NCBI RefSeq assembly: GCF_000959525.1 | Contig: NZ_CP009831.1 | Coordinates: forward strand, 620,001 to 684,000 | From: Burkholderia multivorans ATCC BAA-247 | Lineage (GTDB): Bacteria > Pseudomonadota > Gammaproteobacteria > Burkholderiales > Burkholderiaceae | DNA length: 64,000 bases | Direction of reading: 5' to 3' | Shown here: positions 27,567 through 40,048 of the stretch, one piece after another | How positions within the stretch are numbered: the stretch's first letter is position 1 | Layout: each line of letters begins with the position of its first letter | The notes under the pieces: generated by a model | The model's database searches: none | Told to the model about the DNA's origin: nothing | What the model saw: the letters and a program-made list of their open reading frames with translations, nothing else | Program-made: the position numbers and the translations under genes

Positions 27567-29150
27567 ATGTCCCCCGTGTCGGCATTCAAGCTGATTCTGT
27601 TGTCATTCCTTGCGATCGTTGCGCTCGAATACGCGGCGAAGCGGCTGCGGCTGCCGCCGGCGGCCGCGCTGCTGGTCGGCGGCATCGGCATCGCGTTCAT
27701 TCCGGGCCTGCCGCCGATCAACCTCGATCCCGACCTCGTGCTCGTCGTGTTCCTGCCGCCGCTGCTGATGGACGGCGCGTACTTCTCGGTATGGCAGGAG
27801 TTCAAGCGCAATGTCGGCGGGATTCTGCTGCTCGCGATCGGCGCGGTCGCGTTCACGACGTTCGCGGTCGGCGTTGCCGTCCACTGGGCCGTGCCGTCGC
27901 TGCCGTGGGCCGCGTGTTTCGCGCTCGGCGCGATCGTCTCGCCGCCCGACGCGGTGGCGGCGAAAGCGGTGCTCGAGCGCGTCGCGCTGCCGCGCCGGCT
28001 GATGGTGCTGCTCGAAGGCGAAAGCCTGCTGAACGACGCGGCGGGGCTCGTGCTGTTCCGCTTCGCGGTGGCCGCCGCGCTGACCGGCGCGTTCAGCCTG
28101 CAGCATGCGGTGGTCGGCTTCGCGGAGCTCGGGCTCGGCGGCGTCGTGGTCGGCTTCGTGATCGGCCGGCTCGTCGTGTGGTTCCTGAAGCTGCTCGACG
28201 ACGACTATCTCGTGATCACCGTCGCGGTGCTCGCCGGCTGGATCGCCTATATCGCGGGCGAAATGGTCGAGGTGTCGGGCGTGATCGCGACCGTCACGGC
28301 CGGCATGATCGTCGGCTGGCATCAGCACGAGGTGTTTTCCGCGGCGGTGCGCACGCGCGGCACGGCGTTCTGGCAGGTGATCGTGTTCCTGCTCGAGGCG
28401 CTCGTGTTCGTGCTGATCGGCCTGTCGCTGCGCGGCGCGATGCTGCGGCTCGGCGGCCTCGACCAGGTGCTCGCGACGATGCTGCCGCCGGTCGGCGCGG
28501 TACTGGCCGCGGTCGTGCTGTCGCGCTTCGTCTGGATCTATGCGGTCGAAGCGCTGAAATGGCCGGTGCGCGGCATCATGCGGCGCGGCGACGGGCCCGA
28601 CTGGAAAGCGGCGACCGTGATGAGCTGGGCCGGGATGCGTGGCGTCGTCACGCTCGCGATCGCGCTGTCGTTGCCGGACGCGATGCCGGGCCGCGACGTG
28701 ATTCTCGTCGCCGCCTTCGCGGTGATTCTCGTGACGGTACTGCTGCAGGGCACGACGATCGGGCCGCTGATCCGGCTGCTGCGGCTGCCGCAGCGCCACG
28801 AGCGCGCCGCGCACCACCTGAGCGAGCCGCAGGCGTGGGCACGCGTCGAGGCCGCGCAGCTCGCGGCGATCCAGCCGCTCGTGCGCGACGAGAACGGGGT
28901 CGTGATCCATCCGCGGCTGCTCGAACAGTACACGTACCGCGCGGCGCTGACCGAGCGGCTGAAGGACGAGCCCGAGTTCCCCGCCAGCGCACGCACCGCG
29001 CACTACGACGTCGTGCTGGCCGCGATCGCGGCCGGTCGCGCGGAACTGCTGCGCCTGCATCGCACGGACCGCATCCACGACGAGATGCTGCATGCGCTCG
29101 AACGCGATCTCGACCTGCAGGAAGTGGCCGCCTATCACGCGCGCGGCTGA
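27567..29150 (+). CDS. CPA1-family Na+/H+ antiporter
   Basis: 527 aa polytopic inner-membrane cation/proton antiporter. About twelve hydrophobic helices span residues 5-400, including the ion-path motif FALGAIVSPPDAVAAKAVLERVALPRRLMVLLEGESLLNDAAGLVLFRFA and WAGMRGVVTLAIALSLP. A roughly 120-residue cytoplasmic tail ends at YHARG, as in NhaP/YjcE-like bacterial antiporters. It stands alone between a strong upstream terminator and a 420-base gap. CTCGAGAGG provides a ribosome site. Likely Na+ or K+ extrusion and pH homeostasis. Confidence 0.9.
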   Translation: MSPVSAFKLILLSFLAIVALEYAAKRLRLPPAAALLVGGIGIAFIPGLPPINLDPDLVLVVFLPPLLMDGAYFSVWQEFKRNVGGILLLAIGAVAFTTFAVGVAVHWAVPSLPWAACFALGAIVSPPDAVAAKAVLERVALPRRLMVLLEGESLLNDAAGLVLFRFAVAAALTGAFSLQHAVVGFAELGLGGVVVGFVIGRLVVWFLKLLDDDYLVITVAVLAGWIAYIAGEMVEVSGVIATVTAGMIVGWHQHEVFSAAVRTRGTAFWQVIVFLLEALVFVLIGLSLRGAMLRLGGLDQVLATMLPPVGAVLAAVVLSRFVWIYAVEALKWPVRGIMRRGDGPDWKAATVMSWAGMRGVVTLAIALSLPDAMPGRDVILVAAFAVILVTVLLQGTTIGPLIRLLRLPQRHERAAHHLSEPQAWARVEAAQLAAIQPLVRDENGVVIHPRLLEQYTYRAALTERLKDEPEFPASARTAHYDVVLAAIAAGRAELLRLHRTDRIHDEMLHALERDLDLQEVAAYHARG

Positions 29151-29570: not shown

Positions 29571-30704
29571 ATGAAAGAATCGATTGGAGATTCGGCATTT
29601 GAAACGGTATTTATGAAAGAATCGAGCGGTGAAAGCGCGTCGGATTGTCTCCAATCCGGTTTATCGGTGCTGCTCGTCGACGATCAGCCGTTCGTCGGCG
29701 AGGTGATCCGTCGCGCGCTGCGCAGCGAACACGACATCGACCTGCATGTGTGCACCGACGCGCACCGGGCACTGACGGTCGCGCGCGACGTGAAACCCAC
29801 GGTGATCCTGCAGGATCTCGTGATGCCCGAGATCGACGGGCTCGATCTCGTGCGCGCGTGGCGCGCGGACGCCGACACGGCGCGCGTGCCGATCATCGTG
29901 CTGTCGGCGAAGGAGGAGCCGATCGTCAAGCGCGAAGCGTTCATCGCCGGCGCGAACGACTATCTGGTGAAGCTGCCGGACGCGATGGAGCTGACGGCGC
30001 GGATCCGCTATCACTCGAATTCATACCTGATGTCGCGGCAGCGCGACGAGGCGCTCGACTTTCTGTCGCACGACATGCGCTCGCCGCAGACCTCGATTCT
30101 GGCGCTGCTCGACGTCTATCGCGCCGAGCACGGCGACATGCCGGCGATCATGGAACGCATTGCCGGCCATGCGCGGCGTGCGCTCGCGCTCGCCGACGGC
30201 TTCATTCATCTGACGCGTGCGCAGTCGGAACGGCGCGCGCACGAACTCGTGAGCCTCAACGAGATCGTGCTCGATGCGGCCGACCAGTTGTGGGAGAAGG
30301 CGAACGGCTTCGGCAGCCGCGTCGTCGCGCACGTGCCCGACACGGATTGCGTGACGATGGGCGATCGCATGATGCTGACGCGCGCGGTCGCGAACCTGAT
30401 CGACAACGCGCTGAAATACGGTCCGGCCGGCACCGACGTGCACTGCACGCTCGCGGCCGACGACGGCGCGTGGCTGATCGGCGTCGAGGACGCCGGCCGC
30501 GGCATCGCGCCCGAGCAGCGCGCGGCCGCGACCGAGTCGTTCGTGCGGCTCGAATCTGCGCACGGCGCCGCGCGCAGCGGATTCGGGCTCGGGCTCGCGT
30601 TCGTGCGCGCGACCGCCGCGCGGCATCGCGGCCAGATCCTGATGCGCAATTCGGCGCGCGGCTTCATGGTCGCGCTGCGCCTGCCTGCGCAAGCGCAGCG
30701 GTGA
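29571..30704 (+). CDS. Soluble receiver-histidine kinase hybrid upstream of the wsp genes (WspHRR-like)
   Basis: 377 aa cytoplasmic signalling protein. The N-terminal receiver domain (about 32-150) has acidic residues VDD and phospho-acceptor D82 in ILQDLVMPEIDG. The linked kinase has its H-box FLSHDMRSPQTS with H167, the N-box NLIDNALKYG with N279, and GxG ATP-binding motifs (DAGRGIAP, GFGLGLAF). There are no membrane segments. It immediately precedes a full wsp operon and matches the hybrid kinase reported beside B. cenocepacia wsp genes, which lack wspR. The first 45 bases are partly duplicated, so starts at 29571 or 29613 are both possible. It could accept phosphate from the WspE-like kinase and relay it; that is inference. 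Confidence 0.85.
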   Translation: MKESIGDSAFETVFMKESSGESASDCLQSGLSVLLVDDQPFVGEVIRRALRSEHDIDLHVCTDAHRALTVARDVKPTVILQDLVMPEIDGLDLVRAWRADADTARVPIIVLSAKEEPIVKREAFIAGANDYLVKLPDAMELTARIRYHSNSYLMSRQRDEALDFLSHDMRSPQTSILALLDVYRAEHGDMPAIMERIAGHARRALALADGFIHLTRAQSERRAHELVSLNEIVLDAADQLWEKANGFGSRVVAHVPDTDCVTMGDRMMLTRAVANLIDNALKYGPAGTDVHCTLAADDGAWLIGVEDAGRGIAPEQRAAATESFVRLESAHGAARSGFGLGLAFVRATAARHRGQILMRNSARGFMVALRLPAQAQR

Positions 30705-30749
30705 TGGACGGGCGCGGCCTGCCGATGCCGTGCCGACCCCGATGCGTTC

Positions 30750-30790
30750 CCGGCGTGCCCAGCGGCGCGCCGGCGAGCGCGGATTTTTTT
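30750..30790 (+). terminator. Weak terminator-like hairpin between the receiver-kinase and wspA
   Basis: CCGGCGTGC pairs with GCGCGCCGG (one G-T pair) and a seven-T run follows ten bases later. The distance from stem to T-run makes it imperfect; it may reduce read-through into wspA. Confidence 0.35.
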
Positions 30791-30821
30791 CAACGCAGTT
30801 ATCAGAAAGCCCATAACCAAC

Positions 30822-32498
30822 ATGGCCACCGTGACGCCCCGCGCGACCAATGAAAGCCTGCCCCCGACGATCGGCGCCGTGCGGCTGACGCTCGGCAACC
30901 GCATCCTGCTCAGCTTCGGCGTGCTGTTCGTGCTGATGCTCGTGACTGCCGGCGTGTCTTACGAGCGCCTGCGCGCGATCAACACGGAAGCCGTCAGCAT
31001 CGAGCGCGACTCGCTGCCCGGCGTCTATCTCGCGGCGTCGCTGCGCGGCTCCGTCAACGAGACGTTCATGGCGCTGCAGCAGGCGACCTTCGTCGATACG
31101 GATAGCGAATCCGTGCATCGCGATCTCGCGCGCGTCGCCGACGCGACGAAGCAGATCGACACGCTGTCGGCCGACTATCAGGCCACGACGTTCCGCGACG
31201 ACGATCGCGCGCGCTTCGTCACCTTCCGCGCGGCGTACGACCGTTATCTGCCGCTGCTGAACGACGCCGCGCAGAAAAGCCGGCTGTCGCGCGACGATGC
31301 GGTCGCCGCCTACGCGAAGGTGCTGCCGGCATGGACGGAGACGGTCCGCTACGCCAATACGCTCGTGCAGGAGAACCGCAAGTTCGCGGACGAATCGGCC
31401 AAGCAGATCCGCAACTCGGTGCAGGACACCGAGATCGTGCTCGCGGCCGCGCTCGGGATCGTGCTGCTGTCCGCGCTCGCGCTCGGCTACGGCCTGTACC
31501 GGACGATCACCGTGCCGATGGCGCGGCTCGTCGAGGTGCACGACGTGATGCGCACCGGCAATCTGACGCAGCGCCTGAACCTGAAGCGGCGCGACGAGTT
31601 CGGCACGCTCGAGACCGGTTTCAACCGGATGGCGGACGAGCTGACGGAGCTCGTCGCGCGCGCGCAGCAGTCGTCGCTGCAGGTGACGACGTCGGTGGCC
31701 GAGATCGCCGCGACGTCGCGCGAGCAGCAGGCGACCGCGAACGAGACGGCAGCGACCACGACCGAGATCGGCGCGACGTCGCGCGAGATCTTCGCGACGT
31801 CGCGCGATCTGCTGCGCACGATGAACGAAGTGGCCGGCGTCGCCGAGCAGTCGGCGACGCTCGCGGGCGTGAGCCAGAGCGGGCTCACGCGGATGGGCGA
31901 GACGATGCGCAGCGTGATGGACGCGGCCGGCTCGGTGAACGCGAAGCTCGCGATCCTCAACGAGAAGGCGCTCAACATCAACCAGGTCGTCGCGACGATC
32001 ACCAAGGTCGCCGATCAGACGAACCTGCTGTCGCTGAACGCGGCGATCGAAGCGGAGAAGGCCGGCGAATACGGGCGCGGCTTCGCGGTCGTCGCGACCG
32101 AGATTCGGCGCCTGGCCGACCAGACCGCGGTCGCGACCTACGACATCGAGCAGACGGTGAAGGAAATCCAGTCGGCGGTGTCGGCCGGCGTGATGGGGAT
32201 GGACAAGTTCTCCGAAGAAGTGCGGCGCGGGATGCTCGACGTGCAGCAGGTCGGCGGACAGCTGTCGCAGATCATCGCCGAAGTGCAGACGCTCGCGCCG
32301 CGCTTCCAGATGGTCAACGAAGGCATGCAGACGCAGGCGAACGGCGCCGAGCAGATCACGCAGGCGCTGTCGCAGCTGTCGGAGGCCGCGCAGCAGACGG
32401 CCGAGTCGCTGCGTCAGTCGTCGCAGGCGATCGACGACCTGACGCTCGTCGCAAACCAGCTGCGCACGAGCGTGTCGCGCTTCAAGGTCGACGCGTGA
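30822..32498 (+). CDS. wspA: Methyl-accepting chemoreceptor of the Wsp system
   Basis: 558 aa membrane receptor. TM1 (about 27-46), a periplasmic four-helix-bundle sensor (about 47-202), TM2 (about 204-225), HAMP ([31 protein letters not shown]), then the signalling coiled coil with the conserved hairpin tip [37 protein letters not shown]. In Pseudomonas WspA clusters on surfaces and activates WspE. Its stop overlaps the next gene by 4 bases (GTGA). The start has only a weak ribosome site. Confidence 0.92.
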
Positions 32499-33007
32499 CG
32501 CGCGCGGAATCGCAGAGCGGCGCACACGCGCTGTTCCTGATGTTCGAGCTCGACGGCGAACGCTACGCGCTCGACGCGGCCGGCATCGACGCGGTGCTGC
32601 CGCTCGCGACCGCGAAGGCCGTACCGGGCGCGCCGGACTGGATCGCCGGGCTGCTGATCCACGACGGCGAGCCGGTGCCGGTGATCGACGTGCCGATGCT
32701 CGCGCTCGGGCGGCGCGCGCATGCGCTGCGCTCGACGCGGCTCGTGATGGTCCGCTATCGCGGCGCGGCGGCCGATGGCGGGCGCCGCGTCGGGCTGATC
32801 GTCGAGCGCGCGACGCAGACGATGCGGATCGACCGCGCGGCGTTTCGCGCCAGCGGCATGGCGACGCCGCGCACGCGCTGGCTCGGCAGCGTCGCGAGCA
32901 CGCGCGACGGCATCGTGCAGCTCGTGTCCGTCGCCGATCTGCTCGACGACGTCGCGCGCCTGCATCTGTTCGACGGCCTGTCGGGCCGCGAGGGGGACTC
33001 CGCATGA
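32495..33007 (+). CDS. wspB: CheW-like scaffold protein (WspB position)
   Basis: 170 aa CheW-domain adaptor coupling receptor to kinase. It reads as [60 protein letters not shown], a classic CheW fold. The start is GTG at 32495, overlapping the receptor stop by 4 bases; its own stop overlaps the next ATG by 4 bases. No further domains. First of two CheW genes in the operon, as in Pseudomonas wspB/wspD. Confidence 0.9.
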
Positions 33008-34443
33008 GAGATTTCGATTCGCGCTTTCGCGGCTGGCTGCTGCGCGAGACGGGCATCGACCCCGATTCGCTCGGCAACGACTTCCTGATCCGCGCCGTGA
33101 CCGAGCGCGTGCACGCATTGCTGGCGGCGGACGGCGAACGGCTGCCGTCGTCGGTGCGGCCGCCCGTGACGCCCGAGGCGCTTGACGCGTACTGGCAGCG
33201 GCTCAACGGCTGCGCCGACGAGCGGCGCGCGCTGATCGAGCTGTTCGTCGTGCCGGAGACGTGGTTCTTCCGCGATCGCGAGGCGTTCGCGACCGTCGCG
33301 CGGCTCGCGGTGCAGCGCGTCGCCGCGTCGCCGTCGCGCGTCGTGCGCGTGTTGAGCGCGCCGTGCTCGACCGGCGAGGAACCGTATTCGGTCGCGATGG
33401 CGCTGCTCGACGCTGGCCTCGAACCCGACGACTTCGCGATCGACGCGATCGATCTGAGCGCGCGTGCGATCGAGCATGCGCGCGCCGGCAGCTATGGCCG
33501 CAACGCGTTTCGCGGCACGTCGACCGACTTCCGTGCGCGCTATTTCACGCCGGCCGCGGACGGCTGGCTGCTCGACGAGCGCGTGCGCGCGTGCGTGCAG
33601 TTTCGTCAGGCCAATCTCGTCGAGCCGTTGACGGACACCGGCATCCGCTACGACTTCGTGTTCTGCCGCAACGTGCTGATCTATTTCGATCGCGAGGTGC
33701 AGGATCGGGTGATCCGTTCGCTCGACGCGTGCATGACCGAGGACGGGATGCTGTTCGTCGGGCCTGCCGAAACGGGCGTCGCGATGCGGCACGGCATGCG
33801 TTCCGCGCGGATTCCGCTCGCGTTCGCGTTTCATCGCGAACGTTCGGGCGCCGCCGCGGACGGCTGCGCAACGCGGCGCACAATGCCGATGCCGGCGGCC
33901 GCGCCGTATCGCCGCGCGGAGCGTTTTGCACCCGCGCCGTCCGCCTGGAGCGAGCCGGCGCCGCTCGCGTTCGCGGCGCCGGCCGTACCGATCGGCGGCT
34001 TGGCGGCCGTACATGCGGTCGATGTCGACACGGCGATGGCGGACGGGCCGGCCGTCGCCCGCCCGCGCGCGGCGGACTTGCCCGCGCCGGCGCGGCCGGT
34101 TGCGGCGATGCCCGTGACCGACACGCCGGCCGACGACGCGCACACGCCGACGCTCGAGGATGCGCAGGCGCTCGCGAATGCGGGCGCGTTCGACGAGGCC
34201 GAGCGCGTGCTCGCGCAGTTTTCCGCGCGCGTCGGCCCGCATGCGGACGCGTTCTACCTGCTCGGGCTGATCGCCGACGCGCGCGGCCGCGCGGCCGACG
34301 CGAGCGACTTCTACCGGAAGGCGCTGTATCTGAGGCCGACGCATCACGAGGCGCTGACGCATCTCGCGACGCTGCTCGACGCGGGCGGCGATCGCGCCGG
34401 CGCGCAATGGCTGCTCGAGCGCGCGCGGCGCTCGGCCGGCTAA
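33004..34443 (+). CDS. wspC: CheR-type receptor methyltransferase with C-terminal TPR region
   Basis: 479 aa SAM-dependent methyltransferase that methylates the receptor. The N-terminal CheR helical domain is followed by the SAM-binding motif VLSAPCSTGEEPYSVAMALLDAG (about 117-139) and YDFVFCRNVLIYFDREVQDRVIRSL. A Pro/Ala-rich linker (about 275-375) leads to TPR-like repeats (ANAGAFDEAERVLAQF, ADAFYLLGLIADARGRAADASDFYRKALYLRPTHHEALTHLATLLD), as in WspC. The opposing methylesterase is encoded at 37527. Confidence 0.92.
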   Translation: MRDFDSRFRGWLLRETGIDPDSLGNDFLIRAVTERVHALLAADGERLPSSVRPPVTPEALDAYWQRLNGCADERRALIELFVVPETWFFRDREAFATVARLAVQRVAASPSRVVRVLSAPCSTGEEPYSVAMALLDAGLEPDDFAIDAIDLSARAIEHARAGSYGRNAFRGTSTDFRARYFTPAADGWLLDERVRACVQFRQANLVEPLTDTGIRYDFVFCRNVLIYFDREVQDRVIRSLDACMTEDGMLFVGPAETGVAMRHGMRSARIPLAFAFHRERSGAAADGCATRRTMPMPAAAPYRRAERFAPAPSAWSEPAPLAFAAPAVPIGGLAAVHAVDVDTAMADGPAVARPRAADLPAPARPVAAMPVTDTPADDAHTPTLEDAQALANAGAFDEAERVLAQFSARVGPHADAFYLLGLIADARGRAADASDFYRKALYLRPTHHEALTHLATLLDAGGDRAGAQWLLERARRSAG

Positions 34444-34489
34444 AACGAATACGGGTTCGGAGACCGATACCCGATGACCAGGGGAAACA

Positions 34490-35233
34490 ATGAACCGCGA
34501 CGCCGCTGCCACTGACGACACGACGATCGACGTCGACGATTGCTGGAACCGGATCGGCACGCTCGGCGATCGCTCGTGCGAGCGGCTCGCCGACTGCCTG
34601 CGTTGCCTGAACTGTCCGGTCTACGCGTATCACGCGGCGAAACTGCTCGAGCGTCCGCTCGGCCGCGCGGAGATGGCCGAGGCCGCGCAGCGGATGCGCG
34701 CGTCCGACGTCGCGCATGCGCCGCGCGACGGCGCCGACACGCGCGACGCGGCGCTCGCGTTTCGCGTCGCCGACGAATGGCTCGCGCTGCCGATTCGCGT
34801 GCTGCGCGAGATCGCCGGCACGCGGCCGATCCATTCGCTGCCGCACCGCCGTCATCCGGCCGTGCGCGGCGTCGTGAACGTTCGCGGCACGCTGCGCATC
34901 GCGATCTCGATCGGCGCGCTGCTCGGCCTCGATGCCGGCGGCGCCGAGCGCAGCCGCGGCGACGGCCGTACCGATGGCCGCACCGACGGCCGCACCGATG
35001 GGCGCTTTACGCGGCTGCTCGTCGCCGCGCATCACGGCGAGCCGGTCGTATTCCCGGTCGACGAAGTCGAAGGCGTGCTGCGCTTCGGCGCATCGGACTG
35101 GGTGCCCGTACCGGCGACGGTCGGCCGCGCGAGCGCGGGCCTGTCGCGCGGCGTGCTGTCGTGGCGCGGCAAGTCCGTCGGCCTGCTCGACGACGATCGG
35201 CTGTTCGACGCCGTCACGCGGAGCATGCGATGA
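34490..35233 (+). CDS. wspD: CheW-like scaffold protein (WspD position) with a tandem-repeat linker
   Basis: 247 aa CheW-family adaptor. An N-terminal extension includes LADCLRCLNCPVYAYHAAKLLERPLGRAEM, with a CxxC motif seen in WspD-type proteins. The CheW domain then begins ALAFRVADEWLALPIRVLREIAGTRPIHSLPHRRHPAVRGVVNVRGTLRIAI. It is interrupted by a DGRT repeat (about 158-172) encoded by a 12-base tandem repeat, a probable slippage site in a surface loop. It overlaps the CheA gene by 4 bases. Confidence 0.9.
   Translation: MNRDAAATDDTTIDVDDCWNRIGTLGDRSCERLADCLRCLNCPVYAYHAAKLLERPLGRAEMAEAAQRMRASDVAHAPRDGADTRDAALAFRVADEWLALPIRVLREIAGTRPIHSLPHRRHPAVRGVVNVRGTLRIAISIGALLGLDAGGAERSRGDGRTDGRTDGRTDGRFTRLLVAAHHGEPVVFPVDEVEGVLRFGASDWVPVPATVGRASAGLSRGVLSWRGKSVGLLDDDRLFDAVTRSMR
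34961..35005 (+). repeat. 12-base tandem repeat inside wspD
   Basis: GAYGGCCGYACC is repeated three times in full and once in part, encoding DGRT-DGRT-DGRT-DGR. Twelve bases is four codons, so copy-number change would keep the frame and only vary loop length. Confidence 0.85.
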
Positions 35234-37530
35234 GCAACGACGACGATCTGAGCCACCTGTCGCTGCTCGAACTCTATCGCGAGGAAACGCGCACGCAGAC
35301 GCAGGCGCTGTCCGAACGCCTGCTCGCGCTCGAAGCCGGCGAGCCCGACGCGGCCGCGCTCGAGGCCTGCATGCGCGCCGCGCATTCGCTGAAGGGCGCC
35401 GCGCGTATCGTCGGCGTGCCGCTCGGCGTCGACATCGCGGGACGGATGGAAGAGTGCTTCGTCGCCGCGCAGGCCGGCACGATCACGCTGAGCGCCGCGC
35501 ACGTCGACGTGCTGCTGGCCGGCGTCGATCTGCTGGTGCGCGTCGGCGATCCGCATGCGGCGCCCGTGTCGCCCGCCGAGATCGACGCATTCGCGGCAGC
35601 GCTGACCGGCGCCGACGGCGCGCACACGATGCGGATGCCCGCCGCGGCGCCGACGCCGCCCGTCGTCGCGTCGCGCGAGCACGACGCGGCCGCGAACGAG
35701 CCGGCCGGCGCGTCGATCGCGGTGCCGCCGCCGGGCGTGCCGCGCGCGGCGGCCGAGCCCGCGCAGGCGAACCGCACGGCCGGCGCCGGTGCGATGCGCC
35801 GCGTTCGCGCCGATACGCTGGACCGGCTGCTGAGCCTGTCGGGCGAGTCGCTCGTCGAATCGCGTTGGCTCAAGCCGTTCGCCGAGTCGATGCTGCGCGT
35901 GAAGCGCGCGCAGCGCGATGCCGCGCGCGCGCTGGACCTCGTGTACGAGCAGTTCGCGGACGAGCTCGACGCGGGCGTGCTCGCGTCGATGAACGAAGTG
36001 CGGCACATGCTGAACGATCTGCAGCGTTCGTTCGCCGAGCGGATGGACGAGTTCGACCGCTTCGAGCGACGCAGCACGCACATCGCGGAGCAGCTGTACG
36101 ACGAGGCGCTGCAGTGCCGGATGCGGCCGTTCGGAGACGCGACGCGCGCGTATCCGCGCATCGTCCGCGATCTCGCACGCTCGCTCGGCAAGCAGGTGCG
36201 GTTCTCGATCGTCGGCGAAGCCACGCAGGTCGACCGCGACATCCTCGACCTGCTCGACGCGCCGCTCGGCCATCTGCTGCGCAATGCGATCGACCACGGC
36301 GTCGAGTCGCCCGAGGTGCGGCGCGCGCGCGGCAAGCCGGCCGAGGCGAGCGTCACGCTCGAGGCGCGCCATAGCGCGGGGTCGCTGCTCGTCAGCGTGA
36401 TCGACGACGGCCCGGGCGTCGACATGGACGCGCTGCGCGCGGCCATCGTGCGCCAGCATCTGACCGACGACGAGACGGCCGCGCGGCTGTCCGACCCCGA
36501 GCTGCTCGAATTTCTGCTGCTGCCCGGCTTTTCGATGCGCGACGCGGTGACCGACGTGTCGGGCCGCGGCGTCGGCCTCGACGCCGTGCAGGAAATGGTG
36601 CGCAGCGTGCGCGGTGCGGTGCGCATCTTCAACGAGCCGGGCGCGGGCATGCGCTTCGTGCTGCAGCTGCCGCTCACGCTGTCGGTGATCCGCAGCCTGC
36701 TGGTCGAGGTCGGCGGCGAACCGTACGCGTTCCCGCTCGCACACGTGCGGCGCACGCTCGAACTCGCGCACGAGGACATCGACGTGCTCGAAGGGCAGCC
36801 GCATTTCCCCTTCGACGGCCGGCGCGCAGGGCTCGTCGCCGCGCATCAGCTGCTCGATGCGGGCGAGCCGGACGCGTCGCGCGCGAGCACGGCGGTCGTC
36901 GTGATCGGCGGCGAGCCGGAGCTGTACGGCGTCGCGGTCGACCGCTTCCTCGGCGAGCGCATGCTGGTCGTGCAGCCGCTCGATAGCCGCCTGCACAAGA
37001 TCCAGAACATCGCGGCCGGCGCGCTGCTCGAGAACGGCGATCCGGTGCTGATCGTCGACGTCGAGGATCTGATTCGCTCGGTCGACAAGCTCGTGCGCGG
37101 CGGGCAGCTCGCGAAGCTCACGCGCGATCCGCAGCTCGCGTACGCGGATCGCCGCCGCCGCGTGCTGGTCGTCGACGATTCGCTGACCGTGCGCGAACTC
37201 GAGCGCAAGCTGCTCGAGAAGCGCGGCTACGACGTGACCGTCGCCGTCGACGGAATGGACGGCTGGAACGCGGTGCGCGGCGAAGCGTTCGATCTCGTCG
37301 TGACCGACGTCGACATGCCGCGGATGGACGGCATCGAGCTCGTCACGCTGATCAAGAACGATCCGCTGCTGCAGCGCGTGCCGGTCATGATCGTGTCGTA
37401 CAAGGACCGCGACGAGGATCGCCGTCGCGGGCTCGACGCCGGCGCCGACTACTACCTCGCGAAGAGCAGCTTCCACGACGAGGCGCTGCTCGACGCGGTG
37501 CACGACCTGATCGGGGATGCGCGCGGATGA
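35230..37530 (+). CDS. wspE: CheA-type hybrid histidine kinase with C-terminal receiver (WspE)
   Basis: 766 aa kinase. The HPt domain has phospho-His H52 in MRAAHSLKGAARIVG. After a Pro/Ala linker come the dimerisation helices and the ATPase domain (HLLRNAIDHGVESPEVRR, DDGPGVDMDAL, SGRGVGLDAVQEMV). A CheW-like regulatory domain follows (LTLSVIRSLLVEVGGEPYAFPLAHV), then a receiver domain from about 640 with phospho-acceptor D693 in LVVTDVDMPRMDG. In Pseudomonas, WspE phosphorylates WspR (diguanylate cyclase) and WspF. No WspR is in this window. It overlaps both neighbours by 4 bases. Confidence 0.93.
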   Translation: MSNDDDLSHLSLLELYREETRTQTQALSERLLALEAGEPDAAALEACMRAAHSLKGAARIVGVPLGVDIAGRMEECFVAAQAGTITLSAAHVDVLLAGVDLLVRVGDPHAAPVSPAEIDAFAAALTGADGAHTMRMPAAAPTPPVVASREHDAAANEPAGASIAVPPPGVPRAAAEPAQANRTAGAGAMRRVRADTLDRLLSLSGESLVESRWLKPFAESMLRVKRAQRDAARALDLVYEQFADELDAGVLASMNEVRHMLNDLQRSFAERMDEFDRFERRSTHIAEQLYDEALQCRMRPFGDATRAYPRIVRDLARSLGKQVRFSIVGEATQVDRDILDLLDAPLGHLLRNAIDHGVESPEVRRARGKPAEASVTLEARHSAGSLLVSVIDDGPGVDMDALRAAIVRQHLTDDETAARLSDPELLEFLLLPGFSMRDAVTDVSGRGVGLDAVQEMVRSVRGAVRIFNEPGAGMRFVLQLPLTLSVIRSLLVEVGGEPYAFPLAHVRRTLELAHEDIDVLEGQPHFPFDGRRAGLVAAHQLLDAGEPDASRASTAVVVIGGEPELYGVAVDRFLGERMLVVQPLDSRLHKIQNIAAGALLENGDPVLIVDVEDLIRSVDKLVRGGQLAKLTRDPQLAYADRRRRVLVVDDSLTVRELERKLLEKRGYDVTVAVDGMDGWNAVRGEAFDLVVTDVDMPRMDGIELVTLIKNDPLLQRVPVMIVSYKDRDEDRRRGLDAGADYYLAKSSFHDEALLDAVHDLIGDARG

Positions 37531-38552
37531 ACATCGGCATCGTCAACGATCTGCCGCTCGCGGTCGAGGCACTGCGCCGCGTGCTCGCGCAGCGGCCCGA
37601 TCATCGCGTGCTGTGGGTCGCGGCGGACGGCGACGAGGCCGTCGATTTCTGCGTCGCGCACCCGCCCGATCTCGTGCTGATGGATCTCGTGATGCCGCGG
37701 CTCGACGGCGTCGCCGCGACGCGCGCCATCATGGCGCGTGCGCCATGCGCGATCCTGATCGTCACCGCGAGCGTCAGCGCGAATACGTCGTCGGTCTACG
37801 AGGCGATGGGCGCGGGCGCGCTCGACGCCGTCGACACGCCGACGCTCGCGCTCGGGCTCTCGGCCGATGCGCCGCCGCAGCCGCTGCTCGCGAAGATCGA
37901 CCAGATCGGCCGGCTGCTCGATAGCCGCGCACCGGCGTTCGTGCCGCTCCGGCCGCCGGTGGGCGCGCAGCGTCAGCCGACGCTCGTCGCGATCGGCGCG
38001 TCGGCCGGCGGCCCGACCGCGCTCGCCACGCTGCTGCGGACGCTGCCCGCCGATTTCCCGGCCGCGATCGTGATCGTCCAGCACGTCGACCAGGCGTTCG
38101 CGCTCGGCATGGCCGAATGGCTCGACGGCCACACGCGGCTGCCGGTGCGCGTCGCGCGGCACGGCTGTACGCCGCGCGCCGGCGAGGTGCTGCTCGCGGC
38201 GACCAACGATCATCTGTGTCTGTCGTCGCGCGGCGTGCTCGGCTACACGCGCGAACCGGCCGAGACGCCGTATCGGCCGTCGATCGACGTGTTCTTCGAC
38301 AGCGTCGCCGAGCGCTGGCGCGGCGACGCGCTCGGCGTGCTGCTGACCGGCATGGGCCGCGACGGTGCGCTCGGGCTCAAGGCGATGCGCGCGAAGGGCT
38401 GCTATACGATCGCGCAGGACGAAGCGACGAGCGCCGTGTACGGGATGCCGAAGGCGGCCGCCGCGATCGGCGCGGCATCGGCGATCCTGCCGCTCGACCG
38501 GATTGCGCCGCAGTTGATCGCGCGCGTCGCGCGCCGCGCCGCGCGTCCGTGA
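37527..38552 (+). CDS. wspF: CheB-type receptor methylesterase (WspF)
   Basis: 341 aa response regulator methylesterase that resets the receptor. The receiver domain has D53 in LVLMDLVMPRLDG. The esterase triad is Ser159 in AIGASAGGPTAL, His186 in VIVQHVDQAF, and Asp279 in LLTGMGRDGALG. Loss-of-function mutations in wspF lock Wsp signalling on and raise c-di-GMP in Pseudomonas; B. cenocepacia evolution studies found adaptive wsp mutations too. It is the last gene of the overlapping series. The next open stretch is a riboswitch, not a GGDEF gene. Confidence 0.93.
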   Translation: MNIGIVNDLPLAVEALRRVLAQRPDHRVLWVAADGDEAVDFCVAHPPDLVLMDLVMPRLDGVAATRAIMARAPCAILIVTASVSANTSSVYEAMGAGALDAVDTPTLALGLSADAPPQPLLAKIDQIGRLLDSRAPAFVPLRPPVGAQRQPTLVAIGASAGGPTALATLLRTLPADFPAAIVIVQHVDQAFALGMAEWLDGHTRLPVRVARHGCTPRAGEVLLAATNDHLCLSSRGVLGYTREPAETPYRPSIDVFFDSVAERWRGDALGVLLTGMGRDGALGLKAMRAKGCYTIAQDEATSAVYGMPKAAAAIGAASAILPLDRIAPQLIARVARRAARP

Positions 38553-38806: not shown

Positions 38807-40048
38807 ATGTTTTTCTCGACTTCTGCCGATTTTTTCGCGACGGTGCGCTACGTCTGCCGCTGGCTCGCGCTGTCGATCCTGCTCGGTGCGCTCGCCGGGT
38901 CGGCTTCCGCCCTGTTCCTGATCGCGCTCGACTGGGCGACCGGTACGCGCGTCGCGCATCCGTGGCTGCTCTGGGGATTGCCCGCGGCCGGCTTCGCGAC
39001 CGGCTGGGTCTACCATCGCTTCGGCCAGCCGGTGGCGCGTGGCAACAATCTGCTGATCGACGAGATTCACGATCCGAAGGCGCTCGTGCCGAAGCGGATG
39101 GCGCCGCTCGTGCTCGCCGCGACCGTCGTCACGCATCTGTTCGGCGGCTCCGCCGGCCGCGAGGGCACCGCCGTGCAGATGGGCGGCGCGCTGGCCGATC
39201 GCGTCACGCACGCGTTTCGGCTCGATCGCGAGCATCGGCGCGTGCTGCTGATGGGCGGGATCGCGGCCGGCTTTTCGTCGGTGTTCGGCACGCCGCTCGC
39301 GGGCGCGGTGTTCGGGCTCGAAGTGCTCGCGATCGGCCGGCTGCGCTACGACGCGCTGCTCGCCTGCGTCGCGTCGGCGATCGTCGCGGACGTCGTGTGC
39401 CGCGCGTGGGGCGTGCATCACACCGTCTATGCGGTGCCGTTCGTGCCGGCCGTCTCGGCGGCCGGGCTCGCTGCGACCGTCCTGGCCGGCATCGCGTTCG
39501 GCGCGGTCGGGCGGCTGTTCGCCCATGCGACGCATGCGCTCGCGGCCGGCTTCCGGCGCGCGATCCGCTATGCGCCGCTGCAGCCGGTGCTGGGCGGCGT
39601 GCTGGTGGCGGCCGCCGCGACCGCGCTGAACGTGCCGCAGTATCTGGGTCTCGGCATTCCGACGATCGAGGCCGCGTTTCGCGGCCCGCTGCCCGTGTAC
39701 GACTTCGCGGGCAAGTTCGCGTTTACCGTCGTCACGCTCGCGTCGGGCTTCAAGGGCGGCGAAGTGACGCCGCTGTTCTATATCGGCGCGACGCTCGGCA
39801 ACGCGCTCGGGCACGTGCTTGCGCTCCCGGTGCCGGTGCTCGCGGCGCTCGGCTTCGTCGCGGTGTTCGCGGGCGCGGCGAATACGCCGATCGCGTCGAC
39901 GATCATGGCGATCGAACTGTTCGGCGCGGATATCGGCGTGTATGCGATCGTCGCCTGTGTCGTCGCGTATCTGTTTTCCGGGCATGCGGGCATCTATCGC
40001 GCGCAGCGCGTCGCGGTCGGGAAGGGGGCGCAGGCGGGACAGGAGTGA
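38807..40048 (+). CDS. CLC-F fluoride/proton antiporter
   Basis: 413 aa chloride-channel-family membrane protein of the fluoride-exporting CLC-F branch. The diagnostic sequences are RGNNLLIDEIHDPK (about 78-91) and GGSAGREGTAVQMGG with GREGT at 117-121, in place of the GxFxP-type and GREGP sequences of chloride CLCs. The gating Glu is E119. About ten further helices follow, with GFKGGEVTPLFYIGATLG near 318. It expels toxic fluoride in exchange for protons. The riboswitch directly upstream makes its control by fluoride near certain. The ribosome site before the ATG is weak. Confidence 0.93.
   Translation: MFFSTSADFFATVRYVCRWLALSILLGALAGSASALFLIALDWATGTRVAHPWLLWGLPAAGFATGWVYHRFGQPVARGNNLLIDEIHDPKALVPKRMAPLVLAATVVTHLFGGSAGREGTAVQMGGALADRVTHAFRLDREHRRVLLMGGIAAGFSSVFGTPLAGAVFGLEVLAIGRLRYDALLACVASAIVADVVCRAWGVHHTVYAVPFVPAVSAAGLAATVLAGIAFGAVGRLFAHATHALAAGFRRAIRYAPLQPVLGGVLVAAAATALNVPQYLGLGIPTIEAAFRGPLPVYDFAGKFAFTVVTLASGFKGGEVTPLFYIGATLGNALGHVLALPVPVLAALGFVAVFAGAANTPIASTIMAIELFGADIGVYAIVACVVAYLFSGHAGIYRAQRVAVGKGAQAGQE

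What the first reader, a model, noticed from the sequence alone, without database searches (positions are those of the whole stretch)
29571..38552. Complete Wsp surface-sensing operon with no WspR cyclase; a soluble receiver-kinase hybrid sits in its place
Seen: receptor, two CheW, CheR-TPR, CheA-receiver and CheB are encoded in order with 4-base overlaps at all but the CheR/second-CheW junction. Upstream is a cytoplasmic receiver-kinase (D82, H167, N279 intact). No GGDEF, EAL or HD-GYP domain is encoded from 29.5 to 40 kb. Known: in Pseudomonas the output is the diguanylate cyclase WspR; in B. cenocepacia a hybrid kinase of this kind has been described beside wsp. Inference: the phosphate goes from WspE to the receiver-kinase and then to a distant regulator, so the Wsp input may drive a different output here.
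Basis: partly seen in the sequence, partly recalled or inferred. Interest (0 to 1): 0.7.

Follow-up and report, generated by a model that had tools for sequence, protein, structure and literature searches.

The report
Wsp system with a hidden cyclase
A Burkholderia surface-sensing operon thought to have swapped its usual signal-making enzyme for a relay kinase turns out to keep that enzyme, plus a spare brake, at a second site on the same replicon, and most genomes of the genus that were searched keep the enzyme too.

Summary
This is the published Burkholderia "H-system" (PMC8552884). The "no WspR" reading fails at genome level: an intact wspF2-wspR pair (CheB + REC-GGEEF) lies 0.35 Mb away on the same contig, and the genome has one wspE. 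In 65 genus genomes WspR occurs in 57, WspH in 64, both in 57; six hold both kinds of core, against the printed claim that no genome has both systems. In 44 of 58 WspR loci wspA-E is gone and only wspF2-wspR remains, in the loci compared behind the old wspA promoter region; two genomes show the mirror case (R-core kept, wspH orphaned). The pair is under purifying selection, but the cyclase's RxxD site is broken in 44 of 44. WspH's kinase is closest in the genome to RowS, partner of RowR, the published suppressor target. Best reading: one Wsp core feeds WspH->RowR, two redundant WspF brakes, and perhaps WspR. The spare WspF may explain why wspF mutations were never reported in H-systems. Against WspR coupling: published wspA/wspE mutants did not raise c-di-GMP, and no wspR suppressor appeared.

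The parts
29571..30704 (+). WspH (WspHRR): soluble REC-histidine kinase; D82, H167, N279; likely start M15 (29613)
30822..32498 (+). WspA, membrane receptor (4HB_MCP-HAMP-MCPsignal) of the operon that holds the genome's only WspE; other WspA copies were not searched for genome-wide
32495..33007 (+). WspB (CheW)
33004..34443 (+). WspC (CheR methyltransferase with TPR)
34490..35233 (+). WspD (CheW)
35230..37530 (+). WspE (Hpt-HATPase-CheW-REC), single copy in the genome (next best match is a 35% CheA). Its HPT stretch reads AGRMEEC (by eye the H-type GR of PMC8552884 Table 1); the 9 R-type wspE read have AHAMEEC
37527..38552 (+). WspF (REC-CheB), brake; 69% identical to the distant WspF2
27567..29150 (+). 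Na+/H+ exchanger, upstream neighbour; keeps its place in G047 where wspA-F is gone
38807..40048 (+). CLC chloride channel, downstream neighbour; the next gene after wspH (and a wspA stub) in G047 and after wspH in G040

Best explanation
The window holds the known Wsp H-system, but the working system is larger and split over sites. One receptor-kinase core (WspA-E) faces four separate receiver proteins: WspH and WspF in the window, and WspF2 and WspR at C2:1000309-1002402 (minus strand), the last two genes of an old R-type wsp operon from which wspA-E was deleted in an ancestor. (1) WspE phosphorylates WspH; the WspH kinase domain, of the RowS kind, then phosphorylates RowR, which switches on biofilm polysaccharide genes (genetics published for B. 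cenocepacia; both phosphotransfers inferred). (2) WspF and WspF2 both demethylate WspA, so either can hold the system off (inferred from conserved catalytic residues and selection). (3) WspR also receives phosphate from WspE and makes c-di-GMP without the usual RxxD product inhibition (inferred, least certain). Shown here: gene content, intactness, synteny, single WspE, selection.
For: REC-GGDEF and CheB genes adjacent at C2 with one WspE in the genome. Genus survey, 65 genomes, E<=1e-60: WspR 57, WspH 64, both 57, neither 1. WspE in 62 of 65 at E<=1e-100; of the three misses one is cut by a contig end, one genome is 82% complete, and one has no WspH or WspR either. Family survey, 259 genomes, E<=1e-100: WspR 136, WspE 138, both 135; the one WspR without WspE is a truncated copy with a stop. 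The flank upstream of wspA in 4 of 5 full R-operons matches the flank of 5 of 5 orphan loci tested (4 pairs, 1 lone WspR); the block close to wspA is found in the 4 pairs. WspR tree: the pairs form one clade, 100/100. Omega in 38 genomes: WspF2 0.132, WspF 0.172, WspR REC 0.131, GGDEF 0.155, WspH 0.11. GGEEF and REC residues kept in 58 of 58 WspR. Mirror case: G047 and G040 keep wspH with its core gone and only an R-type WspE. WspH kinase part: best own-genome matches RowS 156.8 bits and its paralogue 120.7, next 76.3. Six of 20 published suppressors of wsp-driven wrinkling hit RowR.
Against: PMC8552884 (sections and passages read) found no rise of c-di-GMP in B. cenocepacia HI2424 wspA and wspE mutants; a WspR without inhibition site driven by WspE should have raised it unless buffered. 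None of the 20 suppressors in PMC4324302 was in a wspR gene. HI2424 itself was not examined here; the B. cenocepacia record I read carries WspR but its wspF2 hit lies in two frames. An insertion in BCAM1161, the likely orthologue, reduced swimming (PMC5835511), opposite to simple loss of a cyclase. Another Hpt-type kinase with its own CheX and CheY-like genes lies 29 kb from the pair (C2:1031714-1034131) and could serve WspR. In G040 the orphan WspH has lost two REC pocket residues (D37S, K134T), so that copy is probably uncoupled. WspR N-terminal tail evolves faster (omega 0.393). Shared ancestry makes the genus counts far fewer than 57 independent events. My surveys found loci by their output gene, so deletions that took the outputs too would be missed.
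Confidence: 0.6

Rival explanations
1. The H-core signals only to WspH and WspF; the wspF2-wspR pair was taken over by another kinase or acts constitutively.
For: No c-di-GMP change in HI2424 wspA/wspE mutants and no wspR among 20 suppressors (PMC8552884, PMC4324302). A 4HB_MCP-HAMP-PAS-Hpt-HATPase kinase lies 29 kb away. The pair has its own promoter region, with a box that has one exact match in the genome.
Against: The genome has one WspE. The nearby Hpt kinase is followed by its own receiver and CheX genes. Among the ORFs right beside the pair I saw no kinase by eye, though only the convergent gene was domain-scanned. The WspR REC kept its conserved residues and changed at few positions after the deletion. 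WspR comes with a WspE in 135 of 136 family genomes, although outside Burkholderia the two are usually neighbours.
Confidence: 0.33
2. One reading: WspR is absent and WspH is the sole output.
For: True of the window, and on gene content of 7 of 65 genus genomes that have WspH but no WspR match at E<=1e-60.
Against: WspR is present and intact in this genome and found in 57 of 65.
Confidence: 0.08
3. The wspF2-wspR pair is a decaying remnant without function.
For: RxxD site lost in 44 of 44 pairs; a frameshift-like break of wspF2 in one B. cenocepacia record; wspF2 missing in G064, which lies inside the orphan clade.
Against: Omega 0.13-0.20, catalytic and receiver residues kept, wspF2 no less constrained than wspF.
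Confidence: 0.05
4. WspH mainly drains phosphate from WspE (a sink) and RowR is activated by RowS alone.
For: RowS is present with or without Wsp: 118 of 259 family genomes, including G016, which has no WspH, WspR or WspE match.
Against: Loss of wspH suppresses the wrinkled state (PMC4324302), opposite to a sink; the kinase residues of WspH that I checked are kept in 59 of 59.
Confidence: 0.07

Closest known systems
Wsp H-system (WspHRR) of Burkholderia cenocepacia HI2424 (PMC8552884, PMC4324302)
   Same: Gene order wspH-A-B-C-D-E-F, REC-kinase without GGDEF, H-type GR in the WspE HPT domain (by eye)
   Different: The genome also keeps wspF2-wspR; [quoted passage not shown]
Wsp R-system of Pseudomonas (WspA-F + WspR)
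   Same: WspR here is REC-GGEEF, next to a WspF, related over nearly its whole length to R-system WspR (64% to a Pseudomonas copy)
   Different: wspA-E missing beside it; RxxD inhibition site broken; separate output WspH present
RowS/RowR two-component pair (Bcen2424_1438/1436 of PMC4324302; here C3:1615724-1618141 and C3:1613681-1614385)
   Same: RowS kinase domain is the closest in the genome to that of WspH (40-41%); both carry LSHDMRSPQ
   Different: RowS is a membrane CHASE2-PAS kinase; WspH is soluble with a REC input

Membership tests
Wsp H-system | wspA-F in order with a 5' REC-kinase gene lacking GGDEF | tested here: met
Wsp H-system | No WspR / R-system in the same genome (stated in PMC8552884) | tested here: not met
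   the feature itself does not hold across the genus, so it should not bar membership
Wsp H-system | Output through WspH to RowR | not testable with these tools
   published suppressors only
WspR (orphan copy) | REC-GGDEF with GG(D/E)EF and phospho-Asp | tested here: met
WspR (orphan copy) | RxxD inhibition site (motif position recalled, not from a call) | tested here: not met
   broken in 44 of 44 pairs, kept in 7 of 8 full operons, 5 of 6 lone copies and 6 of 7 outside Burkholderia
WspR (orphan copy) | Last gene of a complete wspABCDEFR operon | tested here: not met
WspR (orphan copy) | Phosphorylated by WspE | not testable with these tools
   no bench data
RowS-type kinase (for the WspH kinase domain) | Groups with RowS apart from other kinases of the genome | tested here: inconclusive
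   WspH+RowS+paralogue 100/99 against 5 other own kinases; WspH with RowS alone only 81/57; long branches flagged

The most novel reading that the evidence does not exclude
In Burkholderia the Wsp core is an interchangeable module: after two paralogous Wsp systems coexisted, one core was deleted several times at either locus while its output gene was kept, so a single surface sensor now drives two outputs of different chemistry (RowR transcription through WspH, feedback-free c-di-GMP through WspR) with two redundant brakes.
Probability: 0.38. Interest if true: 0.75.

Novelty: new variant of a known kind. Interest (0 to 1): 0.58.

Why it matters
The Wsp system is a model for surface sensing and for evolution of biofilm variants. 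The printed view says Burkholderia replaced WspR and that H- and R-systems exclude each other. On gene content that does not hold for most of the genus genomes searched. A second WspF gives a concrete, testable reason for the puzzle that wspF mutations have never been reported in H-systems (PMC8552884 instead proposed that WspA methylation matters less). It also names a candidate for the cyclase that the field called unknown, and the genomes with two complete systems or reciprocal losses are a natural experiment on how kinase specificity is kept or lost after duplication.

Tried and rejected
Considered and rejected: that WspR-like hits are generic REC-GGDEF proteins (best matches are 76-89% identical over most of their length in the genus genomes other than the window's own, except 66-67% in four; 52 of 58 loci sit beside wspF). 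That WspH 'stops' mean pseudogenes (the two examined lie at residues 2-3, before M15). That G013 has no WspE (its wspE runs into a contig end). That loss of the RxxD site followed orphaning (G010, with a full operon, shares it; the loss came first). That the WspR receiver converged on WspH after the deletion (few changes, not towards WspH). The palindromic box was searched in the genome (1 exact match; all matches with up to 2 mismatches 9, against 10 for the reversed control) and in the window (none above chance). Remnants of wspA, D or E upstream in five orphan loci: none significant. NCBIfam gave no Wsp-specific family name.

Dropped rows: G057 (82% complete, wspF2 cut) from the omega counts and the tree; its WspR tetrapeptide is counted in the 44. 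The 38-genome omega set leaves out 5 of 43 pairs whose H locus or WspF was not fully read (G001, G013, G019, G020, G028). Pairs of sequences with dS outside 0.1-1 were left out of the omegas. G031 lists WspR twice on one contig with identical score; counted once. WspH DNA was not fetched for G042 and only as a short, unused stretch for G057; G001 was fetched on the contig of its wspC-F. The promoter alignment shows 8 of 43 pairs and 7 of 8 full operons.

Full report
WHAT IS IN THE WINDOW. [quoted passage not shown] Neighbours are a Na+/H+ exchanger and a CLC channel. The closest named record is B. multivorans strain 2023CK-01339, with 98.7% identical WspH, 98.6% WspR and 99-100% for the other Wsp proteins, so the window is B. 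multivorans or a very close relative; it lies on contig C2 (2.34 Mb) of a three-contig, 6.32 Mb genome.

WHAT IS KNOWN. This operon is the H-system of PMC8552884 (abstract, sections 6, 7, 9, 10, 14 and passages read), first seen in B. cenocepacia HI2424 as wspHRR. That paper reports 206 H-systems and 588 R-systems, states that no genome contains both and that outputs are exclusive, finds no c-di-GMP change in HI2424 wspA and wspE mutants, and calls the lack of any wspC or wspF mutation in H-systems surprising. PMC4324302 (passages read) reports 20 suppressors of wsp-driven wrinkling: 11 in wsp, 6 in the OmpR-type regulator Bcen2424_1436 (RowR), 3 in polysaccharide genes. So the window itself is already explained in print.

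THE MISSING CYCLASE IS PRESENT. One of the 14 GGDEF places in the genome is a 344-residue REC-GGDEF protein (C2:1000309-1001343, minus strand) that is 58% identical to WspH over residues 32-189. The gene before it is a 334-residue REC-CheB protein (C2:1001398-1002402), a WspF paralogue, 69% identical to the window's WspF. No wspA-E was found in the 13.6 kb upstream, and the genome has one WspE. The convergent gene encodes GAF-PAS-GGDEF-EAL; a like match stands at that place in 44 of 44 pair loci.

THE GENUS. In the 65 genus genomes searched (E<=1e-60), WspR is found in 57, WspH in 64, both in 57; 7 have WspH only and 1 (G016) neither. WspE at E<=1e-100 is in 62; the misses are G013 (wspE cut by a contig end), G057 (82% complete) and G016. 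I fetched the surroundings of all 58 distinct WspR loci and typed them by tblastn: 44 wspF2-wspR pairs without wspA-E (41 with over 7 kb upstream read, 3 near contig ends), 8 full R-operons (one, G040, cut by a contig start), and 6 WspR without wspF. Six genomes have WspE of both kinds (G010, G022, G044, G048, G059, G062). In G022, G059, G062 and the named B. stagnalis YJ-2 I saw no frame break in either operon; G010 has its H-type wspE in two frames, G044 its H-type wspF broken, and G048 its R-type wspE in two frames and an altered R-type wspF at the catalytic Ser. Two genomes, G047 and G040, are the mirror image: wspH stays, the core is gone, and their only WspE is the R-type. In G047 the flanking exchanger and channel and a 26-codon wspA stub mark the native place; in G040 I saw the channel on the downstream side.

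In the family sample of 259 genomes (E<=1e-100), WspR is in 136, WspE in 138 and both in 135, by comparison of the two listings. WspR without WspE: only G190, a truncated copy with a stop. WspE without WspR: three Burkholderia (G021, G038, G042), which have WspH.

Named records: B. cenocepacia CMCC(B)23006 has a full H-operon and WspR, with wspF2 in two frames; B. multivorans has both loci intact; B. arboris has both output proteins; B. lata, B. anthina and B. dolosa have the wspF2-wspR pair.

HOW IT AROSE. The orphan clade (43 pairs, lone WspR of G064, and the B. cenocepacia record; 45 rows) joins at 100/100, sister to the full operon of G010. The DNA upstream of wspA in 4 of 5 full operons tested (G010, G022, G048, B. 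stagnalis) matches the DNA upstream of five orphan loci in blocks of 77-93% identity; in the four pairs this includes a stretch within about 30-190 nt of the start codon. The fifth full operon, that of G044, did not match and lacks the GGDEF-EAL neighbour, so it sits elsewhere. The stretch holds a conserved TTCGATTGC and a CATGACAGCAT core, in this genome a palindrome CCGCATGACAGCATGCGG (8 pairs and 7 full operons aligned). So wspA-E was removed in place and wspF2-wspR now follow the old wspA promoter region. Separate losses left WspR alone in G063 and in the G014/G015/G027/G050 clade.

IS IT FUNCTIONAL? All 58 WspR keep the REC residues and GGEEF; of 52 WspF2 (pairs and full operons) the phospho-Asp is kept in 51, the catalytic Ser in 50, His in 51 and Asp in 52; one sequence is cut (G057) and the other Ser miss is the full operon of G048. 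Median omega over 38 genomes: WspF2 0.132, WspF 0.172, WspR REC 0.131, WspR GGDEF 0.155, WspR N-terminal tail 0.393, WspH 0.110, WspH REC 0.034. The RxxD motif before GGEEF (recalled as the product-inhibition site) is broken in 44 of 44 pairs, but intact in 7 of 8 full operons, 5 of 6 lone WspR and 6 of 7 non-Burkholderia WspR. G010 shares the loss, so it came before the deletion and is one event or very few.

WHERE WSPH SENDS ITS SIGNAL. In this genome the two best matches to the WspH kinase part are CHASE2-PAS kinases: RowS (C3:1615724-1618141, 41%, 156.8 bits) beside the OmpR-type regulator RowR (C3:1613681-1614385), and a paralogous pair on C2 (40%, 120.7 bits); the next kinase scores 76.3 bits. 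A tree groups WspH, RowS and the paralogue (100/99) apart from five other kinases of the genome, but WspH with RowS alone is weak (81/57). RowS is in 118 of 259 family genomes, including all 34 Burkholderia in that sample and G016, so it is likely older than WspH. That RowR here is the orthologue of Bcen2424_1436 rests on architecture and on the neighbouring CHASE2-PAS kinase, not on a sequence comparison with HI2424. This agrees with the suppressor genetics and suggests that WspH arose by joining a WspR-type receiver to a RowS-type kinase (inference).

WHAT FOLLOWS. The single core meets two brakes. In Pseudomonas, wspF mutations switch the system on (PMC8552884); with a second WspF, loss of one would be masked, which would explain why no wspF mutation was reported in H-systems. 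This is inference. The printed statement that wspC mutations are absent too does not fit PMC4324302, whose Table 1 lists an 8-bp deletion in wspC as a suppressor. The cyclase branch is the weakest step: published c-di-GMP data and the lack of wspR suppressors speak against a strong WspE-WspR link, at least in HI2424 under those conditions, and a 4HB_MCP-HAMP-PAS-Hpt-HATPase kinase with its own CheX and receiver genes lies 29 kb from the pair as a possible other donor. The likely orthologue BCAM1161 (inferred from its number next to the GGDEF-EAL gene BCAM1160 and from the single REC-GGDEF gene counted in K56-2; not checked by sequence) gave reduced swimming when disrupted (PMC5835511, section 20 and passages). 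A deletion exists in H111 (PMC6335245, passages and section 14), a paper in which a search for 'wsp' found nothing; PMC9684580 lists the strain (passage).

IN PRINT? Searches of the held library listed no paper that, from listings, abstract starts and the passages read, reports WspR or a second WspF beside an H-system in Burkholderia. Most subscription papers are not held, and the 2014 paper cited as the source of wspHRR was not seen.

Noticed in passing
L178 (G010), L179 (G044), L166 (G048), L203 (B. cenocepacia CMCC(B)23006): Apparent frame breaks in one Wsp gene each (H-type wspE; H-type wspF; R-type wspE; wspF2), and in G048 an altered catalytic stretch of the R-type wspF. Could be real decay of redundant copies or sequencing errors in GC-rich DNA.
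   Followed up: partly
L200 / G040:C53: The orphan WspH of G040 has lost two conserved receiver residues (D37 to S, K134 to T) while its kinase boxes remain, as if uncoupled from phosphorylation.
   Followed up: partly
C2:1002530-1002545 (L279) and upstream of wspA in 7 full R-operons read: A conserved CATGACAGCAT core (palindromic in this genome) with TTCGATTGC before it, kept after the core deletion; one exact match in the genome. Possible operator; its binding protein is unknown.
   Followed up: partly
L039 6275-9451 (C2:2112274-2115450): A second CHASE2-PAS kinase with OmpR-type regulator, paralogous to RowS/RowR; an alternative target or partner for WspH-type kinases.
   Followed up: partly
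L015 12776-15289: A GAF-PAS-GGDEF-EAL gene convergent with wspR; a GGDEF match stands at the same place in 44 of 44 pair loci. A candidate local c-di-GMP partner.
   Followed up: partly
L287 7715-12878 (C2:1031714-1036877): A membrane 4HB_MCP-HAMP-PAS-Hpt-HATPase kinase followed by CheX-like and CheY-like genes, 29 kb from the wspF2-wspR pair.
   Followed up: partly
G044:C15 (L162) and G044:C1 (L155): G044 carries a wspF2-wspR pair and a full R-operon at another place without the GGDEF-EAL neighbour or the usual upstream flank, so the full operon was probably gained by transfer.
   Followed up: partly
window 29571-29615: WspH starts MKES...MKES; two relatives have a stop before the second Met, so M15 is the likelier start.
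   Followed up: yes
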